A stretch of 38,499 nt of DNA. It comes from a virus. Position numbers and translations under genes: made by a program. Under the pieces are notes generated by a model. It had not been told where the DNA came from. It worked only from the letters and a program-made list of their open reading frames with translations, and made no database searches. How positions within the stretch are numbered: the stretch's first letter is position 1; every line of letters starts with the position of its first letter. Positions 12,025-35,198 of this stretch are shown one piece after another. The stretch lies in IMG/VR virus record IMGVR_UViG_3300025896_000072, positions 1 to 38,499 of that record. One strand, written 5' to 3'.

Positions 12025-13068
12025 TTAAAGGAAATCTCGGCCGATAATCTCGGCAACCTGTTTTCTCGAGAGGATCGGTGCGGAAATTCCAATGTTTCTC
12101 ATCACCGCTTTTGTGAAAATATCGGCAATGGTTGCATCGGTGGCAATCACTCTTTGGTTGTACACTCATTGCATACTCTGCCATTTTCCCCGGATAATTT
12201 GGCGGTCAATATGTCGGGCCACCATATATACCATGATCCGGCGATCATCCGCAAAACCAAGCCCTCTTTTAAACATCTTTGCAATTTCTGATGGTGTAGC
12301 AACTTGATCCGGGTTGCTCTCATTCCAAATCTTTGCCTCAAATGCTTTTTGTAAATAAAGAGTCCGGCGATTTTCTCGGGCCTTGATCACTTTCTCAAGT
12401 TCGGTTGTAAGTGCAAACTCATAGCGAGAAAAGAAATGCTTTATTTCACTATACCGGATCCAAAATTGGCCAATACCTCCCCAAGAGTTTGGTGAGAAAA
12501 ACCCACCTTTGTATCCATCCGAAAAAGTATGCTCATCATCATACCCGGTGATTGCGAATATGTGGCCACCCTGCTTGGTGGTTTTATTCCATTCCTTTGA
12601 TGTTTTGATGGCCTGCCAATCGGCAAGTTTTACACCGGTTGCAATCCCTTTCCCTCCGGCGATAATCATTTTCATTTTATCAACATTTGTGCCTCCACCT
12701 GTATCAATTCTCACATAGGCACCAATGTGGCCAAGATCCTTGAGTAATTGTAATGCCGATTGAAACAACCACCCGGTTTTGTCTCATGCACCCCTCTTTT
12801 TTGCCTCATCCCACACATCCCAAGGATTGTATGGTTGGTAATAATTTTCTTTTGCTCTTTGTGCAAAGGTTTCATTATATGCCATTGATGATCCAAAAAC
12901 AGTACATGCACCAATGCTCCCTTGGTTGAGTCAAGGTGCAATGTCGAGTATTACCCGGCTTGGTATTTCCCCCATCCCTGTTTCCTCAAAAACCTCATCA
13001 TGTGTAAGGTCTCGAGAATCCGGAAGATCCACCGCAAAATCATATTTTTCCAAATTGATATTTTCCAT
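12025..13068 (-). CDS. Papain-like (C1A) cysteine peptidase
   Basis: Cysteine peptidase of the papain fold, 347 aa. All four active-site elements are present and in order: Q49 and C55 in PGLNQGSIGACTVFGSS, H169 in GGHIFAITGYDDEH, and N194 in SPNSWGGIGQFWIRYSEI. The oxyanion-hole glutamine lies six residues before the cysteine, as in papain. No signal peptide is seen, so it may act in the cell or be carried in the particle. A helical C-terminal domain (about 215-347) is of unknown role. TGA glycines occur just before the Q-C block and near the C-terminus. It follows the tail fibre and the PLA2-like gene, which suggests host attack or processing of tail proteins. Confidence 0.85.
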
Positions 13069-26487: not shown

Positions 26488-27654
26488 TTACTTGACTTTC
26501 ACATTTTTGAGGATTCCGGTCATTTCTGCATTTTCAACTTGGAAGTCGAGACGCATTGTGATCACAAAATCTGTTGCTCTTTCCTTTGGTACTCGATCCG
26601 GCTCGATCGTAATATCTCGTTGGATACCATAGATAAAGTTGTAATCCGGTGTAAGAAGTACATCCGCACCATCAAGGGTTGTTTCCTTGACTGTATTCTC
26701 TGTTGAGAGAGTGTGGTTGTATCCAAATGGGATTGCATCGGTGAGTACAAGGTGTGTTGCATCCGTAACAGTATCAATTGTTGTGGAAAATTCCTTGTCC
26801 TGTCCAAGTGCGAGAGTGACAACATCACCTGCGGTTGCATTGGTTGTGCTTGCAACTGTGATATTTACCGCTCCGGCAACTGGTGATGCTGTAAGAGTTG
26901 TATTGAGTCCACCGGTTTTGAATACTGGGCGATCAATGCTCATTATGTTGGCCTTTGTAAAGTCCACACCAAATGCACCATACTTGTTTACAGTATTATT
27001 TGATGCCTCATACTTCACCTCGTAATCAATAGCAACATCATCCGGCATATACCATTTGTTGAGTACATTGCGGTATTTTGTGTCTATGCTCTTGCGAAGT
27101 TTTGCAAGTTTTTCTTTGTCGATATAACGATCTGCAAAGAGTACGGTGTTTGATGCATCAACAACCACTCCGGCTGTTTCAACTGCTTTCACAAAACCAT
27201 CAAACATTTGAAGAAGATCCGCCGGATTGGCAACCTTTCGAGAGTAAAGACCAACTCTTTCAAGCTGATTTGAAACTTTCTTGGCAATCATTTTCATCAT
27301 GTGTTCTTTGAAAGCCACACCCTCAATGTTGTCCTCGATTTCGTCATCATAGATACGGACCTCACCAATAACCTCTTGAGAAGTAAGTGTGATTTTGTCC
27401 GGTGTTGCCTCTGTTCGCTTGTTTGTGTCAAGTGCCTGTCCTCGCTGTGCCGGATAAAGGATCTTATCGGAAATACCGATTTTTCCAATTACCTTGCTTG
27501 GTGTATCCATACGGACCACACGAGAAGATTTGAGAATTACACTTTCATCAACTACATAGTCAATGAATTTGTCCGCCTGTGCTGTATTAAGGTGTACAAG
27601 TGTTGATTGCCCATCACCTGTAAACGCTTTTGCAATTTTTTGTGCCTTATCCAT
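26488..27654 (-). CDS. Major capsid protein
   Basis: Shell subunit of 388 aa, HK97-fold by position and pattern. It starts MDKAQKIAKAFTGDGQSTLV; EVIGEVRIYDDEIEDNIEG resembles the spine and P-domain region, and YMPDDVAIDYEVKYEASNN the A-domain side. Residues about 245-320 (LTASPVAGAVNITVASTTNA, ATHLVLTDAIPFGY) form an inserted beta domain like an Ig-type surface domain. It contains no in-frame TGA at all, in contrast to most genes here. The terminator follows at once. Scaffold and maturation genes lie upstream in the normal order. Confidence 0.88.
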   Translation of the reverse strand: MDKAQKIAKAFTGDGQSTLVHLNTAQADKFIDYVVDESVILKSSRVVRMDTPSKVIGKIGISDKILYPAQRGQALDTNKRTEATPDKITLTSQEVIGEVRIYDDEIEDNIEGVAFKEHMMKMIAKKVSNQLERVGLYSRKVANPADLLQMFDGFVKAVETAGVVVDASNTVLFADRYIDKEKLAKLRKSIDTKYRNVLNKWYMPDDVAIDYEVKYEASNNTVNKYGAFGVDFTKANIMSIDRPVFKTGGLNTTLTASPVAGAVNITVASTTNATAGDVVTLALGQDKEFSTTIDTVTDATHLVLTDAIPFGYNHTLSTENTVKETTLDGADVLLTPDYNFIYGIQRDITIEPDRVPKERATDFVITMRLDFQVENAEMTGILKNVKVK

Positions 27655-28220: not shown

Positions 28221-28868
28221 TTATACTGCTTTTTCGTACTTCTTTGATATTCTTTCGAGCTTTCGCAATAGCTCGGTTTTGATCTCATCGTATACCTCGG
28301 CACCAAAACTCACCTTTCCGGAAAATGTGGAAACTCCGGCAATGTCTTGATCCTTATTATAGGAAAGTGATATGTGTGGCTTGTATCCCTCGTAATCCCA
28401 TGATGCACCACCATCAATATATTTTTTCCACCCTTTCTCGAGATCCTTTGACTCAAACATTATCACAATGGCATCACCAAGTTTCTCAATGGTTGCACTT
28501 TCCAAGGTGATCTCAAGATCCTTTGTATCGGGTGTGAAATCCTGCCATACCACTTTCTTTTTGGAAAAGGCAATGGTTGTGTGCATCTCCTCCGGCTTCA
28601 CAAGATCCATTATGCCTTGATCCTCGGCCCATTTCAAGATCTTCTTGGCATTGGTGACACCTCGGGATACATAGAGGGTTTTTTTATCGTATTTCTTTGA
28701 AATATTCTCAAGTTTTGTGAGATTATCGGCGGAAAGTTTTGGTTTATTGTCACCAAATACCATCTTGAAAATGGAAAATGTGGTTTCGGCTTTTGGTACT
28801 GCCGGCCTTTTTCCTCGGGATATGAGTGATATTTTATCAACAAAAACATCTTTGATTGAGAATGCCAT
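28221..28868 (-). CDS. 2H phosphoesterase-like protein with XkdF-like start
   Basis: Protein of 215 aa. Two His-x-Thr/Ser motifs, MHTTIAFS (H96, T98) and KPHISLSY (H165, S167), are the signature of 2H phosphoesterases, which open cyclic or 2'-5' nucleotide bonds. The N-terminal block DKISLISRGKRPAVPKAE resembles the first part of XkdF-like capsid proteins. It stands between XkdF and scaffold. The anti-CBASS phage protein Acb1 is a 2H enzyme, so a role against cyclic-nucleotide defence is possible (inference). I chose the ATG at 28866-28868. TGA-free. Confidence 0.65.
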   Translation of the reverse strand: MAFSIKDVFVDKISLISRGKRPAVPKAETTFSIFKMVFGDNKPKLSADNLTKLENISKKYDKKTLYVSRGVTNAKKILKWAEDQGIMDLVKPEEMHTTIAFSKKKVVWQDFTPDTKDLEITLESATIEKLGDAIVIMFESKDLEKGWKKYIDGGASWDYEGYKPHISLSYNKDQDIAGVSTFSGKVSFGAEVYDEIKTELLRKLERISKKYEKAV

Positions 28869-29254: not shown

Positions 29255-29812
29255 CTATCCTTTTGAAATTTCCTCTCTTTGTCCAACACCCTCAATGGAT
29301 ATACCCACAAACTCGCCATCTTGGATCTTTTGGTATGTTTCATCATCAAACTTGATGCCAACCACCCATGATCCCTTTGGTATTGTCTCAAGGCCAACCG
29401 GTATGGTCACCGGTGCAACAAAGCTCTCCACAAACTCGGCGGTTTGTATATCGGTGTCCTTTTCATGGTCCACATTTACACTTTTTTTGCTCAAGTTTCT
29501 CACAAAATCATGTGCGGTCTTGGTGATCTCCTCCTCGGTGATAATATCGCCATTGCGGTCAATCTCGAAAGGTACAAGGGCCACAAAGAGTACAGTATTA
29601 AAACCATTATCGGTTTTGATGATTTGCATTTTTGATGATGTTTTTTCGATCTTGCTTTTTTCTTGCTCGATCTCTCGGCCTTGCATCTCGGCACTTGTCT
29701 TGGCACTCTCTCGGCTTTCTTGATCACCAAAAATATATGTGTAGCATGTGCCACCATCACCATATTTGTATCATGGCTCACCATTGATCCGGCATGCTTG
29801 TATCTTATCCAT
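29255..29812 (-). CDS. XkdF-like prohead protease
   Basis: Putative capsid maturation protease of the XkdF type, 185 aa. It starts MDKIQACRINGEPGYKYGDG (the glycine in EPGYKYG is TGA), the family opening. The core has FEIDRNGDIITEEEITKTAH, VNVDHEKDTD with the active-site histidine region, FVESFVAP, IPKGSWVVGIKF and EFVGISIEGVGQR with the putative catalytic serine. It lies upstream of scaffold and capsid genes as expected. Confidence 0.82.
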
Positions 29813-29887: not shown

Positions 29888-30118
29888 TTACATGTATTTT
29901 GCTATATCAAAGGATGGATCCTTTTGGCCATTGAATTTGTACCATTGGCCATCAAGGTTGGTGCCAAACTCAAGGATCTCAATGCTCCGGCCACTCGCCT
30001 CAAGGATGATGCCAAGGATCTCATCATCACCAAGCACTTGGACCTCTTGAATAAATAGGCCATCCACAATGTGGCCATCCTGTTGGTATGCCTCAATGAT
30101 CTGATCAACTGTTTTCAT
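29888..30118 (-). CDS. Hypothetical protein (76 aa)
   Basis: Starts MKTVDQIIEAYQQDGHIVDG and has beta-rich middle (FIQEVQVLGDDEILGIILEA). TGA-free, soluble. It follows the MuF-type gene after a 10-base gap. If the MuF tail is a toxin, this gene sits where an immunity protein would be expected, but nothing in its sequence shows that. Confidence 0.6.
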   Translation of the reverse strand: MKTVDQIIEAYQQDGHIVDGLFIQEVQVLGDDEILGIILEASGRSIEILEFGTNLDGQWYKFNGQKDPSFDIAKYM

Positions 30119-30128
30119 GGTGTGAAAG

Positions 30129-31754
30129 TTATTGGATAAAGTCATGCCCTATGTTGGTATAAAATTCTTTCATAGCTCGGTGAGTCTTTGGCAAGAATTT
30201 CTCAATGAGTGGATTACCAACCCAAAATGTTTCATTGAGGTGTGCAAAATATTCTTGTGCTTGATTCTCGGTGATCCTCGCTTGGCCATGTCGGAAAAGT
30301 CCCATTGAGTTTTTGTAATAGCTCTTGCCATGCCCCCAACCAACTGTTGCCTCCTTGGTCAATGCTCCAAGAGTATCCATAAATCATGCAATATCTTGTG
30401 TTAATTCCTCGGATGTGGCAATGTGAGTGTATTGCCGGCCGGCCACTTCTTTCACACTCTCGGTGATCTTGTATGCGGTGACTGCATCAAGGTCCCTATA
30501 TTTATCAAGGATGCTTTTTGCGATCTTTCCAATGTGGCTTGTAGGGTGAAACAATGCCCTCAACTCTTTATCCTTGATCAACTCTTTTACCTCATCAACA
30601 CTATCCTTGAAAAGCCCTTTGAATACTCCAAATTTTTGATCATCCGGCATCACCACTCTTGTGAAAAACATGTGGCCAACCTCATGTGCCTCCACCACTT
30701 GGTGCTTGTATGTTGTGGCTCAACTCGCCTTTTCTCCAAGGTTGATTTTGTCACCCCTCCGCATGTAATATGCACGCCCCTTTGGCTCAATGTAATTGGC
30801 CTTGAAACCAATGGCATTGAAATATCTTGCCGGCAATATCTTGCTTGAGTATTGATCATAATTATCCGGTTTCATGCCATCATCCCATTGGCCATCCTCG
30901 GGTATGTATGATTGCTCCTTGTCCACATCGGTGGCATTCTCGGCGGTGATGTTTTCCCCATCATCCCTTGGATCAAATAGGCGGTATACAGTATTACACC
31001 GGCATCATACATGCCTCAATGGTTTCATGTGGCCACTTGGAAACTCTTGATCATAAGGGATCCACCCTTTATCATCATTTTCAAGGCATTCCGGTGTGGT
31101 TTTATCATCTCGGTGTGATACCCACTTTTTCCACCCTCTTTGGCCAAAATTCCTTGTGTATCTTGCAAACTGTCGATCCTTTCCATTCAAGTATGCATCA
31201 CCGATCTCTTGGCTCGCAATGAGTCTTGCCCGATAATCTGAAAATGCGAAATCTCGCTTTAATTCGTTTGCAAGTTTCATGTATCACCACCCTTTCTCAA
31301 GCCCTTGGGAAACCAAGTTGTTGATTTGCTTTTTTGAGTAATCATCAATGCCTTTTATTTTCGATCCTGCAAACTCATTGGCATACTTGAGTGCATCGGC
31401 CGGATCAACACTAAAAGTGCCGGTGACTCGTATATCCTTTTTAAAGGATTTGTTGAGTTGCTTGGCACCTATATTGAAACCCTCGGTAAGCATCTTTGAG
31501 TATTCATCAAAATCCTTGTTGGAAATATCCTTGGTGATAAATTGCTTTTGATCAATAAAGAGATCATTATATTTTACCTCGGTATTTTTTGCAAGATCAT
31601 CCAACACTTGTTGATACCATCGGCCAAGCATTCTTGAGATCGTTTTTATATACTTTTCTTGCAAATCAATCAACTGTTTACCGCCAAGGTTGTATAATTT
31701 CTTGGTTTCCTTGCTAATTTTTAGCTTGTAAATTGCCGAGTAAATCATTTTCAA
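30129..31754 (-). CDS. MuF-type head protein fused to a zinc-peptidase-like domain
   Basis: Protein of 541 aa. Residues 1-260 are the Mu F/SPP1 gp7-like minor head domain: GLEKGWGYMKLANELKRDF, RARLIASQEIGDAYLNG, and the end motif RHVGCRC. The rest is an extra domain with the zinc-binding pattern AHEVGHMFF (HExxH, residues 357-361) and a likely third ligand in QAQEYFAHLNE (about residue 501). Four TGA glycines join five fragments, two of them at conserved glycines of the MuF part. MuF fusions to polymorphic toxin domains are known in other phages. It may be injected with the DNA. It overlaps the portal gene by 41 bases. Confidence 0.82.
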
Positions 31755-33039
31755 GATCGGTTAAGTTTTTATAAAAATGGCCTGCCTCTCCTTTCATAAG
31801 CTCGGTGAGATTGTCTTTTTGGACCTGTTGTGAGTCCACCGCCAATACATCACCACCATCAATCTTGCCAAGCCCCAATTTTTCTCTCACTTCATTGGCT
31901 GTCATGATTCCGGCTTTCTTATATCCGGCCAATACCTCCATTTGCTCCTTTTCATCGGTGGTATCAATCCACTCATATTCGAGATCATCCACCTTGTACC
32001 CCTCGGCAAAGAGGATCTTGAAATCCTTGAGGTTTTGTGCTTGTGCCGGTGCTATGGTAAAGCTGTTGAAAGTCTCCATGCTCACTTGGCTTGATGCTCG
32101 GTTGCTGTTATCTGATAGCAACATATCGTATGGAACATTGAGAGCAATGGCCACCGATTGCAAGAGTTGTGTGCGGTACTCAATGAAAGCCTTGGCATCA
32201 ATATCATGCTCAAGATCCAATTGGCCAACCTCTTGATCAACAATGGCGGTTGAGTATGCCTTTTCCACCCCTTTCATTTTCGCCTCAAGAAATGCTTTTA
32301 ATACTTTCTTATCCTCAACACCAAAAACCTTTTTTTCATTCTTTGGAAAGATCATTTTTGCCTTGATCATACCATTGGTAAATGCCTTGCTGTAATAGGT
32401 GTCAATTTGCTCCATGAGGATCAATTGATCAACCACCGCCTCAAAGTATGATGCCCCATAATACTTGGTTGATAGTGAGGTATTCTTGAAATGGTACACT
32501 TGGTTGAGGTTTGGATTATACCCACATCCATGCCCTGTATTTTTCAACTCCTTTGCACCGGCTTTGCTCTCGGTATATATCAAAGTTCTTGCGGTCCTGT
32601 CATCTTTCGGAGTAAAGGCATTGAAATATACCACATCCGTTCCAACCTGTTGGCGGTATCCATCACCATCCTCCATGATCTCGATTGTATGGGAAAGGAT
32701 AGGCAAAAGATCGGTTACTTTACCGGTTCCATCCTCGATCACCTCAAAAAAGGCATTACCCAAAAGCACCTTGTTTCGGCCAAGAAACTCTTGATCAATT
32801 TTATGGATCATCTCCAAGAGGCCTTCATCTTTACTCTTGAAACCGCTATTGATGGCGGTTGCGATCTTATCGGTGAGGCCGGCCACAACAAAACTATCAT
32901 AATACAATGCGGTGAGTGTCGAGAAAGGTATTGCCGGCGATCTTGTGCCAACTGTTTTAGTATTCTCCTTGGCCTGTTTTGAGTTGGGATTGTCTCACAC
33001 CTTTACAATCTCAACTGTGCTGTCCTCTTGCTTGCTCAT
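31714..33039 (-). CDS. Portal protein
   Basis: Portal subunit of 441 aa forming the DNA gate of the head. It starts MSKQEDSTVEIVKVGDNPNS; one TGA at 32995-32997 (GDN) hides the true N-terminus in the standard code. Family blocks are LGNAFFEVIEDGTGKVTDLL, VYHFKNTSLSTKYYGASYFE, ALNVPYDMLLSDNSNRASSQ and GIMTANEVREKLGLGKIDGG. Lies between terminase and MuF genes. Expressed from promoter L7. Confidence 0.92.
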
Positions 33040-33071
33040 AGGTAATAAATAATGATATAAATTATGGTTTG

Positions 33072-33107
33072 AGAATAGGTAATTTTTATTTTTATTCAAT
33101 GTCTTTA
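33072..33107 (-). promoter_or_regulatory. AAAGACATTGAA-class promoter L7
   Basis: Minus strand: TAAAGACA box overlapping the end of the regulator gene, -35 TTGAAT (33094-33099), 16-bp spacer, -10 TATTCT (33072-33077). First of the seven late-type promoters in the direction of transcription; it serves the portal gene. Confidence 0.7.
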
Positions 33108-33578
33108 TAAATCATACTTTTTAATGGTTTTTTCCAACCACTTCATGTTGTCAATATAGATCTTTGTCATGGTCTTTTCCTCCTCATCAAATCCAAGGGC
33201 ATCAAAGAGGTGTTGGATGGTCCAAGAGTCAAAGGTTGGTAATGCATCACCGCTCTCAAGTCTTGCCAAGGCCCTCTCATCCACTCGCACCATCTTGGAA
33301 AGATCATGCAAATCAATCTCAAGTTGCAACCGCTTGTACCGGATAAATGTGCCAAAAAGACTCGGGGTTTTTGGATACCACTTTTTGATATTGTCTTTGT
33401 AAAACTGGTCTCTCTCAAGGCCAAAGTGTTTGTACAAAATATCAAGATTGTTTTTACTGTACTTTTTCCAATCTCGTTTGAGTAGGCTGTAAAATACCCC
33501 GGTGCAAATGCCGGTTTCGTGATGTAGCTCTTGGATTGTGTGAGTGTCCAAGTATTCTCGGATTTTTTCAACAAGCAT
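33105..33578 (-). CDS. XRE-type transcription regulator
   Basis: DNA-binding protein of 157 aa. The N-terminal third (IQELHHETGICTGVFYSLLK) looks like one helix-turn-helix. The C-terminal half has a full XRE domain, GTFIRYKRLQLEIDLHDLSK, then VDERALARLESGDALPTFDS. It lies between the large terminase and the portal gene, just before the first AAAGACATTGAA promoter, whose box overlaps its stop codon. That makes it a natural candidate for the factor controlling this promoter class (inference). TGA-free. Confidence 0.78.
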   Translation of the reverse strand: MLVEKIREYLDTHTIQELHHETGICTGVFYSLLKRDWKKYSKNNLDILYKHFGLERDQFYKDNIKKWYPKTPSLFGTFIRYKRLQLEIDLHDLSKMVRVDERALARLESGDALPTFDSWTIQHLFDALGFDEEEKTMTKIYIDNMKWLEKTIKKYDL

Positions 33579-33596: not shown

Positions 33597-35075
33597 TTAA
33601 ACCAACTCAACCCCACCACTACCGGCACCATTTTCAATCCAATCTTGTGCTTTGGTAAGTGCAAACACCAAGGCATCCATTTCATCATCATGCTCAACAT
33701 CCGGATATTGTGTGATCTGCTCAACCAATGTCTCTTGGCCATCCTTGAGAAAGTACACATCACCAACCTCAATTTGTCCGGCAACTCCAATCAACCTTGT
33801 GTATTTGTCTCTATGGCTCCAAATGGATTGTATGGGTAATCATCGGGCCTTGAGATCATCCGTCAATTTCACCTCCACATTGTCCTCTTTCACAATCACA
33901 TCCGGCTCAAAGCGATCATTGATATTGATAATGAATTGCTCAAGCTCTCTTGGTGCGAGCTTCACCCCTCGGGAAAATATCACATACTTTTTGTACTCTT
34001 TCACACCCAAAACACATAATCCGGTAAAATCATTTTGCTCCTTGGTCTTGGTGGCCGGATCAACTGCAAATACGATATAATCAAACTCAAGCGGTGGCAC
34101 ATAGTACCTTATCCAATGCTCCTTGATTACCTTATCGGCGGTATTAAGAGGGATGTTGCGAAACTCTTGATTGAAATAGGCGGTACCAATACCCTTTTTT
34201 CTCATTTCCTTTCCGGTCTTTGGATCGGTGAAGATCTTGCCATCTCGCCTCTCAATGAGTGCTTGTTTATTCCACATCTCTGGCCACAAGATGTTTTCAA
34301 AGTGATCATCACATGCTTGATATTCAATGGTTGGCCACTTTTTCTCATCTCTCAACTGTTTCACAAAACAAAGGTTTCCCACAATTGTGCCAAGGGCAAC
34401 CATCCGCCCTCATGGCAAAAGTACATTGTATAATGAGGTAAATGCCCACTCAAGAAACTCTCTTGCCATTGTTGGATTTTTTACATCCTTGTTATCCTGC
34501 GGATCATCCATGATGATTTCCCTTGGTCTCGCACCTCGGATCGGTTGGCCTCTCGTTACTGTTTCAATGTATGATCCATTCAAAAACTCAAGCTCCTTTT
34601 GTCTCCACTTATTCAACCTCTTATCCTTTTTGTCATCGGAGTTGGTTGGCACTATGTTTCCAAATATGCATTGGATCTTTTTGTTGATTTCCAACTCTCG
34701 GCGGATCTTACCCAATCCCTTTTCTCAAAGGTTTTTGGATGCCACATATACCATGCTCCATCCCGGGAAATATAAGATCCTCCACATCATGTATATCAAG
34801 AGGGCGGTGGTTTTCCCATGTCCTCGGGCAATGATAATGTTGAGGTCGTTTAATTCATCGGTGGTGAGTTTTGCCCATATTTCCTTGTGAAAGTGGGGGG
34901 TATTGATGAAACCATTTGGCCCTTGTTTCCAATGAGTAAAGTGATAATCAGAAAACCACCCAATGTCGTAAAATCAATGCCAATAAATGTACTCCTCAAG
35001 TACACCATCCGGCAAAACATCTTCATGTTTCTCAAGTTCCTTTATCTCTTGATATGTGAGTTTTTCATATCTCAT
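33597..35075 (-). CDS. terL: Terminase large subunit
   Basis: DNA-packaging motor of 492 aa. The ATPase has Walker A ARGHGKTT (residues about 83-90), Walker B REIIMDDP (D190-D191) and the coupling block LLPGGRMVALGTIVG, where the first glycine of GG is a TGA. The RNase-H-like nuclease has FAVDPAT (D339) and DVIVKEDN, and closes with HDDEMDALVFAL. Four TGA codons split it into four fragments in the standard code. The start ATG is at 35073-35075. It follows the small terminase gene after a 123-base gap. Confidence 0.95.
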
Positions 35076-35198
35076 TGACAATTGATTTTTAAGAAAAAAT
35101 ATATTTGATTCCGCCCGGTGAGTGAGGTTGCCTTTTTGGCTTTGTGAAAGGATTATGATTTTCTCGGTTTTTTGTCTCTGATTATTGTATAATATAGA

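What the first reader, a model, noticed from the sequence alone, without database searches (positions are those of the whole stretch)
30129..31754. MuF head protein carrying a zinc-peptidase-like C-terminal domain
After the MuF end motif (RHVGCRC) the protein continues for 280 residues with HEVGH and a possible third zinc ligand in QEYFAHLNE. MuF proteins fused to toxin domains are known as a phage-borne polymorphic toxin class. Here the effector would be a metallopeptidase delivered with the DNA into a host of a group known for an epibiotic or parasitic life. The next gene (29888-30118) is in the place of an immunity gene.
Basis: partly seen in the sequence, partly recalled or inferred. Interest (0 to 1): 0.7.

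Follow-up and report, generated by a model that had tools for sequence, protein, structure and literature searches.

The report
Phage head protein with protease cargo
A virus of bacteria that read the stop codon TGA as glycine carries, on the tail end of one of its head proteins, what looks like a working zinc protease with a small partner gene behind it; this is a known type of phage-borne toxin arrangement, here found in phages of an unusual and mostly uncultured bacterial group.

Summary
With TGA read as glycine, 30129-31754 (-) is one 541-residue MuF head protein directly after the portal gene. Its last ~260 residues are a zincin domain: HEVGH (357-361) and a Glu (E501) in a later helix are invariant in five related code-25 phages, and HExxH plus the matching Glu in six distant ones. 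A confident AlphaFold model has zincin topology; the solved structures it ranks best against are mostly zincins, led by the lethal factor/PPEP group.

The domain and the 76-aa gene behind it (29888-30118) behave as one cassette: both present in five code-25 phages, both absent in seven relatives with short MuF. A tree of five genes requires at least two changes. In two Enterococcus phages with 86% identical MuF parts, the zincin plus its small gene is replaced by an ADP-ribosyltransferase plus a different small gene, the mark of polymorphic toxins.

Best reading: a MuF polymorphic toxin, a protease carried in the head and injected with the DNA, with the next gene as probable immunity protein. 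Injection, toxicity and immunity are inferred. MuF-metallopeptidase toxins are known (Jamet 2017); the lineage and the lack of a recognised integrase are the less expected parts.

The parts
30129..31754 (-). MuF-zincin fusion gene (541 aa, TGA=Gly; likely ATG start at 31748)
30990..31331 (-). MuF domain (residues 142-255), ends in RHVGCRC
   Evidence: Pfam PF04233 E 2.7e-12
30132..30914 (-). C-terminal zincin domain (residues 281-541)
   Evidence: AlphaFold pLDDT 87.5, pTM 0.86; the listed PDB second-look matches are mostly zincins, led by the LF/PPEP group
30672..30686 (-). HEVGH zinc-binding and catalytic motif (residues 357-361)
   Evidence: HE.GH invariant in 5 code-25 phages; HExxH invariant in 6 distant MuF proteins
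30327..30341 (-). GWGHG motif (residues 472-476), a family signature before the second zinc helix
   Evidence: GH...Y invariant in the 7-sequence alignment and in the 6 distant proteins; role unknown
30252..30254 (-). E501, the probable third zinc ligand, in QEYFAHLNE
   Evidence: invariant in 5 code-25 phages and matching Glu invariant in 6 distant proteins; on helix 216-232 of the model
29888..30118 (-). 76-aa downstream gene, candidate immunity or partner protein
   Evidence: orthologues only in the 5 phages that have the zincin domain, none in 7 relatives with short MuF
31714..33099 (-). portal protein gene, directly upstream of MuF
   Evidence: Pfam Phage_portal E 3.3e-26
29255..29812 (-). 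S78_2 (XkdF-like) putative head protease, the gene that follows MuF in L043, where the cassette is absent
   Evidence: Pfam PF14550 E 1e-23; L043 gene order

Best explanation
This is a MuF-type polymorphic toxin. The MuF part (shown by profile) puts the protein into the phage head beside the portal (established for MuF proteins, inferred here). The C-terminal zincin domain (shown by conservation and predicted fold) is carried in the particle and enters the cell with the DNA (inferred), where it cuts one or more cellular proteins and disables an unprotected cell (inferred). The 76-aa gene behind it makes a small protein that protects the producing cell from the protease before lysis (inferred from position and from strict co-occurrence). 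Domain and small gene move as one cassette that can be present, absent or, in homologous phages, replaced (shown by comparison).
For: MuF domain after the portal gene. HExxH and E501 invariant. AlphaFold model with helix, three strands, HExxH helix, insertion, and Glu helix, the zincin core described in PMC5512222. Ranked PDB structures are mostly zincins: LF domain I Z 9.4, LF catalytic domain Z 7.4, PPEP-1 Z 6.8, IrrE 4.7. Single homologues touch zincin Pfam families M90 (E 0.00023), MPTase-PolyVal, M78, ATLF. Cassette and small gene both present in 5 and both absent in 7 relatives; L043 without it is nested among carriers, p-AU 0.001 for carriers as one clade. In VEsP-1 and SEsuP-1, MuF parts are 86% identical while the C-terminal domain (zincin against ART-PolyVal, E 1.8e-6) and the small gene are unrelated. 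The small-gene family follows the zincin across VEsP-1, BUCT704, Javan202 and Javan266. A separate S78_2 head protease is present in the same operon. Precedents: MuF toxins Bxa and Apk2 are toxic and neutralised by adjacent immunity genes (PMC11699363); 20% of putative MuF toxins have a metallopeptidase domain (PMC5576092).
Against: No experiment. Among the five code-25 carriers the C-terminal domain is never swapped for another, only present or absent. No tyrosine integrase or resolvase was found in nine records, whereas MuF toxins were tied to temperate phages; without lysogeny the use of an immunity gene is less obvious. The window's small gene shows no similarity to the small genes of the Firmicutes versions. 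Pfam matches of the window's own domain stay under the curated cut-offs, and Foldseek E-values are not significant.
Confidence: 0.62

Rival explanations
1. An injected anti-defence or takeover protease rather than a killing toxin: it cuts a host defence or regulatory protein early in infection, and the small gene is a chaperone, inhibitor or packaging partner that keeps it quiet during assembly.
For: No integrase or resolvase in nine records, so these may be virulent phages with no use for killing competitors of a lysogen. A second optional payload, the anti-CBASS enzyme Acb1, sits on another head-operon protein in the window, L002 and L004. Weak effects on the lysis decision or on defences were proposed for MuF proteases.
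Against: A small gene that comes and goes strictly with the domain, and the swap with an ADP-ribosyltransferase plus new small gene in homologous phages, fit toxin-immunity better. The phages may be incomplete or lysogenise by other means.
Confidence: 0.22
2. A self-processing or head-maturation protease: the zincin cuts MuF or other virion proteins during assembly or ejection.
For: Polyvalent-protein zincins were proposed to process their own polypeptides, for example in phage P1 DdrB (PMC5512222).
Against: The operon has its own S78_2 protease. Seven relatives have a short MuF and no zincin. The zincin is the last domain, so it has nothing behind it to release. The small gene would be unexplained.
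Confidence: 0.12
3. An inactive, structural remnant of a protease.
For: No activity has been shown; LF domain I, a zincin fold without catalysis (own knowledge), is the best structural match.
Against: H357, E358, H361 and E501 are invariant while the rest of the domain falls to 37-53% identity, and HExxH and the matching Glu persist in distant phages.
Confidence: 0.04

Closest known systems
MuF toxin family (Jamet et al. 2017, PMC5576092), including MuF proteins with a metallopeptidase domain
   Same: MuF domain, gene next to portal, C-terminal enzyme domain, small gene behind it; 20% of putative MuF toxins there have a metallopeptidase domain.
   Different: Those were mostly in temperate phages and prophages of Firmicutes; here code-25 phages without a recognised integrase.
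phrog_4728 head morphogenesis proteins, e.g. Enterococcus phage VEsP-1 minor capsid protein (QYI86495.1)
   Same: Same two-domain layout over nearly the full length; HExxH, GH..Y and E.FA motifs in the same order.
   Different: 21% identity in the C-terminal domain; HExxHxxD in that group, no such Asp here; unrelated small downstream gene; standard code; VEsP-1 has an annotated integrase.
Bxa of a Bacteroides stercoris prophage (MuF-ADP-ribosyltransferase, PMC11699363)
   Same: Enzyme fused behind MuF with small genes beside it; toxicity and immunity shown by experiment there.
   Different: Different enzyme; prophage of Bacteroidales.
Zincins of the lethal factor/PPEP (ATLF, MEROPS M34) group
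   Same: Predicted fold and placement of the HExxH helix and a later Glu-bearing helix.
   Different: Sequence similarity is marginal (ATLF E 0.031 for one homologue); delivery would be by a phage head, not by secretion.
MPTase-PolyVal zincins of polyvalent proteins (Iyer et al. 2017, PMC5512222)
   Same: Zincin domain in a protein expected to enter the cell with phage DNA.
   Different: Only a sub-threshold profile match (15.7 against 27.5 bits); two domains rather than a long polyvalent chain.

Membership tests
MuF polymorphic toxins | N-terminal MuF domain | tested here: met
   PF04233 47.9 bits, cut-off 29.6
MuF polymorphic toxins | gene directly downstream of the portal gene in the packaging module | tested here: met
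   portal 31714-33099, terminase 33597-35081
MuF polymorphic toxins | C-terminal extension with a toxin-type enzyme domain | tested here: met
   zincin by invariant motif and predicted fold; enzyme activity not tested
MuF polymorphic toxins | small ORF (<150 aa) behind the toxin gene, tied to the toxin domain | tested here: met
   76 aa; both present in 5 and both absent in 7 relatives
MuF polymorphic toxins | C-terminal domain is exchangeable between related proteins | tested here: inconclusive
   swap shown for homologous Enterococcus phages; in the code-25 group itself only presence or absence was seen
MuF polymorphic toxins | association with temperate phages | tested here: inconclusive
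   no Phage_integrase or Resolvase in nine records, which may be incomplete; two HTH genes present
MuF polymorphic toxins | toxicity and neutralisation by the neighbour | not testable with these tools
   needs experiment
Zincin metallopeptidases | HExxH on a helix plus a third ligand on a later helix | tested here: met
   H357, E358, H361, E501 invariant; both helices in the model; zinc geometry not measured, coordinates not available
Zincin metallopeptidases | helix, three-stranded sheet, HExxH helix, Glu helix | tested here: met
   model pLDDT 87.5; ranked PDB matches mostly zincins
MEROPS M34 / Pfam ATLF | sequence match over the family's curated cut-off | tested here: not met
   only one homologue at E 0.031, none for the window protein itself; fold similarity at Z 7-9 does not make it a member
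Pfam MPTase-PolyVal | sequence match over the family's curated cut-off | tested here: not met
   15.7 bits against 27.5

The most novel reading that the evidence does not exclude
Phages of Gracilibacteria or Absconditabacteria that do not integrate load their heads with optional enzyme cargo (a zincin on MuF, the anti-CBASS enzyme Acb1 on a second head-operon protein) to disable the cell at the moment of infection. The zincin-specific small protein then serves the infected cell itself or guards it against sister phages, a use of MuF toxins outside lysogeny that is not described in the papers read here.
Probability: 0.2. Interest if true: 0.65.

Novelty: new member of a known kind. Interest (0 to 1): 0.46.

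Why it matters
It places MuF polymorphic toxins in phages of code-25 bacteria, a group with few known phages. It gives a natural comparison (cassette present, absent, swapped) that makes the toxin-immunity idea directly testable with two small genes. It also defines a shared signature (HExxH, GH..Y, E.FA) for a MuF-borne zincin found from Enterococcus and Streptococcus phages to this lineage, and annotated there only as head or minor capsid protein.

Tried and rejected
Reading the gene by the standard code gives five fragments; rejected for code 25. Search for the MuF protein alone in viral contigs found no relative; relatives came through the terminase and the C-terminal alignment. Both genome-contig scans found no relative, so there is no cellular host link. 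Alignments A3 and A7 were too divergent for a pattern scan. Foldseek against the PDB gave no significant match; the second look by VIA-align carries the fold argument. The small protein's model has no PDB match at Z 2 or more among 81 chains and no Pfam or PHROG match; its weak NCBIfam thymidine-kinase match is far below cut-off. Homology of the window's small gene to the Firmicutes small genes was tested and not found. A head-maturation role was rejected as the main reading because an S78_2 protease is present and the zincin is missing in seven relatives.

Full report
Observation. Translated by the standard code, 30129-31754 (-) breaks at four TGA codons; with TGA read as glycine it is one frame of 541 residues. 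The code is well supported. Ten main genes hold 33 internal TGA and end in TAA or TAG. Of seven window TGA sites that align to L044, a relative that reads by the standard code, five have glycine there, among them the glycine of the MuF end motif. The window is a 38.5-kb virus record without terminal repeats. Upstream are portal (Pfam E 3.3e-26) and large terminase; downstream are a 76-aa gene, an S78_2 protease, an Acb1 fusion and a gene at 26488-27654 taken here as the major capsid protein from its place and its relatives. The likely start of MuF is the ATG at 31748.

Domains. MuF lies at residues 142-255 (E 2.7e-12). The remaining ~285 residues match no Pfam family over its cut-off; the best is the zincin MPTase-PolyVal at E 0.016, around HEVGH. 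Homologues of the domain touch other zincin families (M90 at E 0.00023, M78, ATLF).

Relatives. A terminase search found close phages L002, L003 and L004, also in code 25; the C-terminal alignment added L033 and its copy L034. In window, L002, L003, L004 and L033 the MuF protein carries the same C-terminal domain, the relatives at 36-54% identity to the window. H357, E358, G360, H361, G472, G474, H475, Y479, Y480, E501, F503, A504, H505 and E508 never change. The same domain sits behind MuF in Enterococcus phage VEsP-1, Stenotrophomonas phage BUCT704, Streptococcus phages Javan202 and Javan266, Flyfo myovirus Tbat2_7, Dulem virus 32 and a human faecal phage. Across the first six of these, HExxH, GH...Y and the Glu of E.FA stay invariant. 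A profile comparison of the code-25 and Firmicutes-type groups gives probability 96% over the G.GHG to E.FAH part. VEsP-1 matches phrog_4728 over its full length, and the window and L002 match the same family across both domains. So the domain is an old companion of MuF, not an accident of this genome. The third zinc ligand is best placed at E501; the later H505 and E508 are not conserved in the distant group.

Fold. AlphaFold on residues 281-541 with five sequences gives pLDDT 87.5 and pTM 0.86: helix, three strands, the HExxH helix, a helical insertion with a hairpin, then the helix holding E501. This is the zincin core as described for polyvalent proteins (PMC5512222). Foldseek gives no significant PDB match. 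The second look ranks lethal-factor domain I (Z 9.4), the lethal-factor catalytic domain (7.4), the Clostridioides protease PPEP-1 (6.8), IrrE (4.7) and further zincins down to ArdC (2.9); the few other rows are at the bottom. These Z values are middling by the tool's own note; the weight lies in nearly every listed structure being a zincin and in the motif positions. No coordinates were available to measure the zinc site.

Cassette. Among terminase relatives with a readable MuF, the zincin and the 76-aa gene are both present in window, L002, L003, L004 and L033, and both absent in L043, L044, L045, L006, L049, L050 and L052. In L043, whose terminase is 60% identical to the window's, MuF stops right after GCRCNITYRLFNPNE and the next gene is the S78_2 protease. 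On a tree of terminase, portal, capsid, protease and the MuF part, L043 lies between L033 and the rest; holding the carriers together as one clade is rejected (p-AU 0.001). The pair has therefore changed together at least twice (gains, or a gain and a loss). The contrast rests on few independent events, so the association is suggestive rather than statistically strong.

Swap. Enterococcus phages VEsP-1 and SEsuP-1 share 87% identical portals and MuF proteins that align at 86% up to residue 367. Behind that point VEsP-1 has the zincin and SEsuP-1 an ADP-ribosyltransferase (ART-PolyVal E 1.8e-6, just under the curated cut-off), and the small genes behind them are unrelated. The small gene of VEsP-1 is 50% identical to that of BUCT704 and about 28% to those of Javan202 and Javan266, all behind zincins. 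This is the behaviour of toxin-immunity cassettes. The window's small gene shows no detectable similarity to that set.

Mechanism. The most likely course is packaging by MuF, entry with the DNA, cleavage of cellular proteins by the zincin, and protection of the producing cell by the 76-aa protein. Shown here: architecture, conserved active-site residues, predicted fold, cassette behaviour. Inferred: packaging, entry, protease activity, toxicity, immunity. Precedents are the MuF toxins Bxa and Apk2, whose neighbours are immunity proteins (PMC11699363), a MuF toxin detected by proteomics of phage StB12, and a metallopeptidase domain in 20% of 191 putative MuF toxins (PMC5576092). An anti-defence role is the main rival: no tyrosine integrase or resolvase was found in nine records of this group, and an anti-CBASS enzyme rides on another head-operon protein in the window, L002 and L004.

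Known or new. MuF-metallopeptidase fusions are a known kind, so this is a new member. What is less expected is the place: code-25 phages, presumably of Gracilibacteria or Absconditabacteria (PMC10746230; host not confirmed here), and possibly non-integrating ones, whereas the 2017 survey found no MuF toxin in a virulent phage.

Noticed in passing
28221-28868 (-): Acb1 anti-CBASS domain (Pfam PF23474 E 1e-31) fused behind a ~60-aa segment (IKDV.V.KISLISRGKRPAVPKAET.FSIFK). That segment stands alone in L003, L033, L043, L044 and L045 and is fused to the S78_2 protease in L049. Among these, Acb1 is present in window, L002 and L004 only: a second optional payload on a head-operon protein.
   Followed up: partly
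L005:4034-5320: MuF protein of a code-25 relative is interrupted after ...DDEPLAHPN by a Hint/intein-like sequence.
   Followed up: no
12025-13068 (-): Possible papain/C39-like cysteine peptidase in the late region, weak Pfam match E 0.0056.
   Followed up: no
33105-33578 (-): An HTH regulator gene lies between terminase and portal (HTH_3 E 0.0003), an unusual place.
   Followed up: no
L035 and L103 (Enterococcus phages VEsP-1 and SEsuP-1): Near-identical MuF parts with swapped C-terminal domains and small genes, a ready test pair for MuF toxin-immunity specificity.
   Followed up: yes
L044 (IMGVR_UViG_3300038701_003007): A relative with 47-48% identical terminase reads by the standard code, so the code differs within this phage group.
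   Followed up: partly
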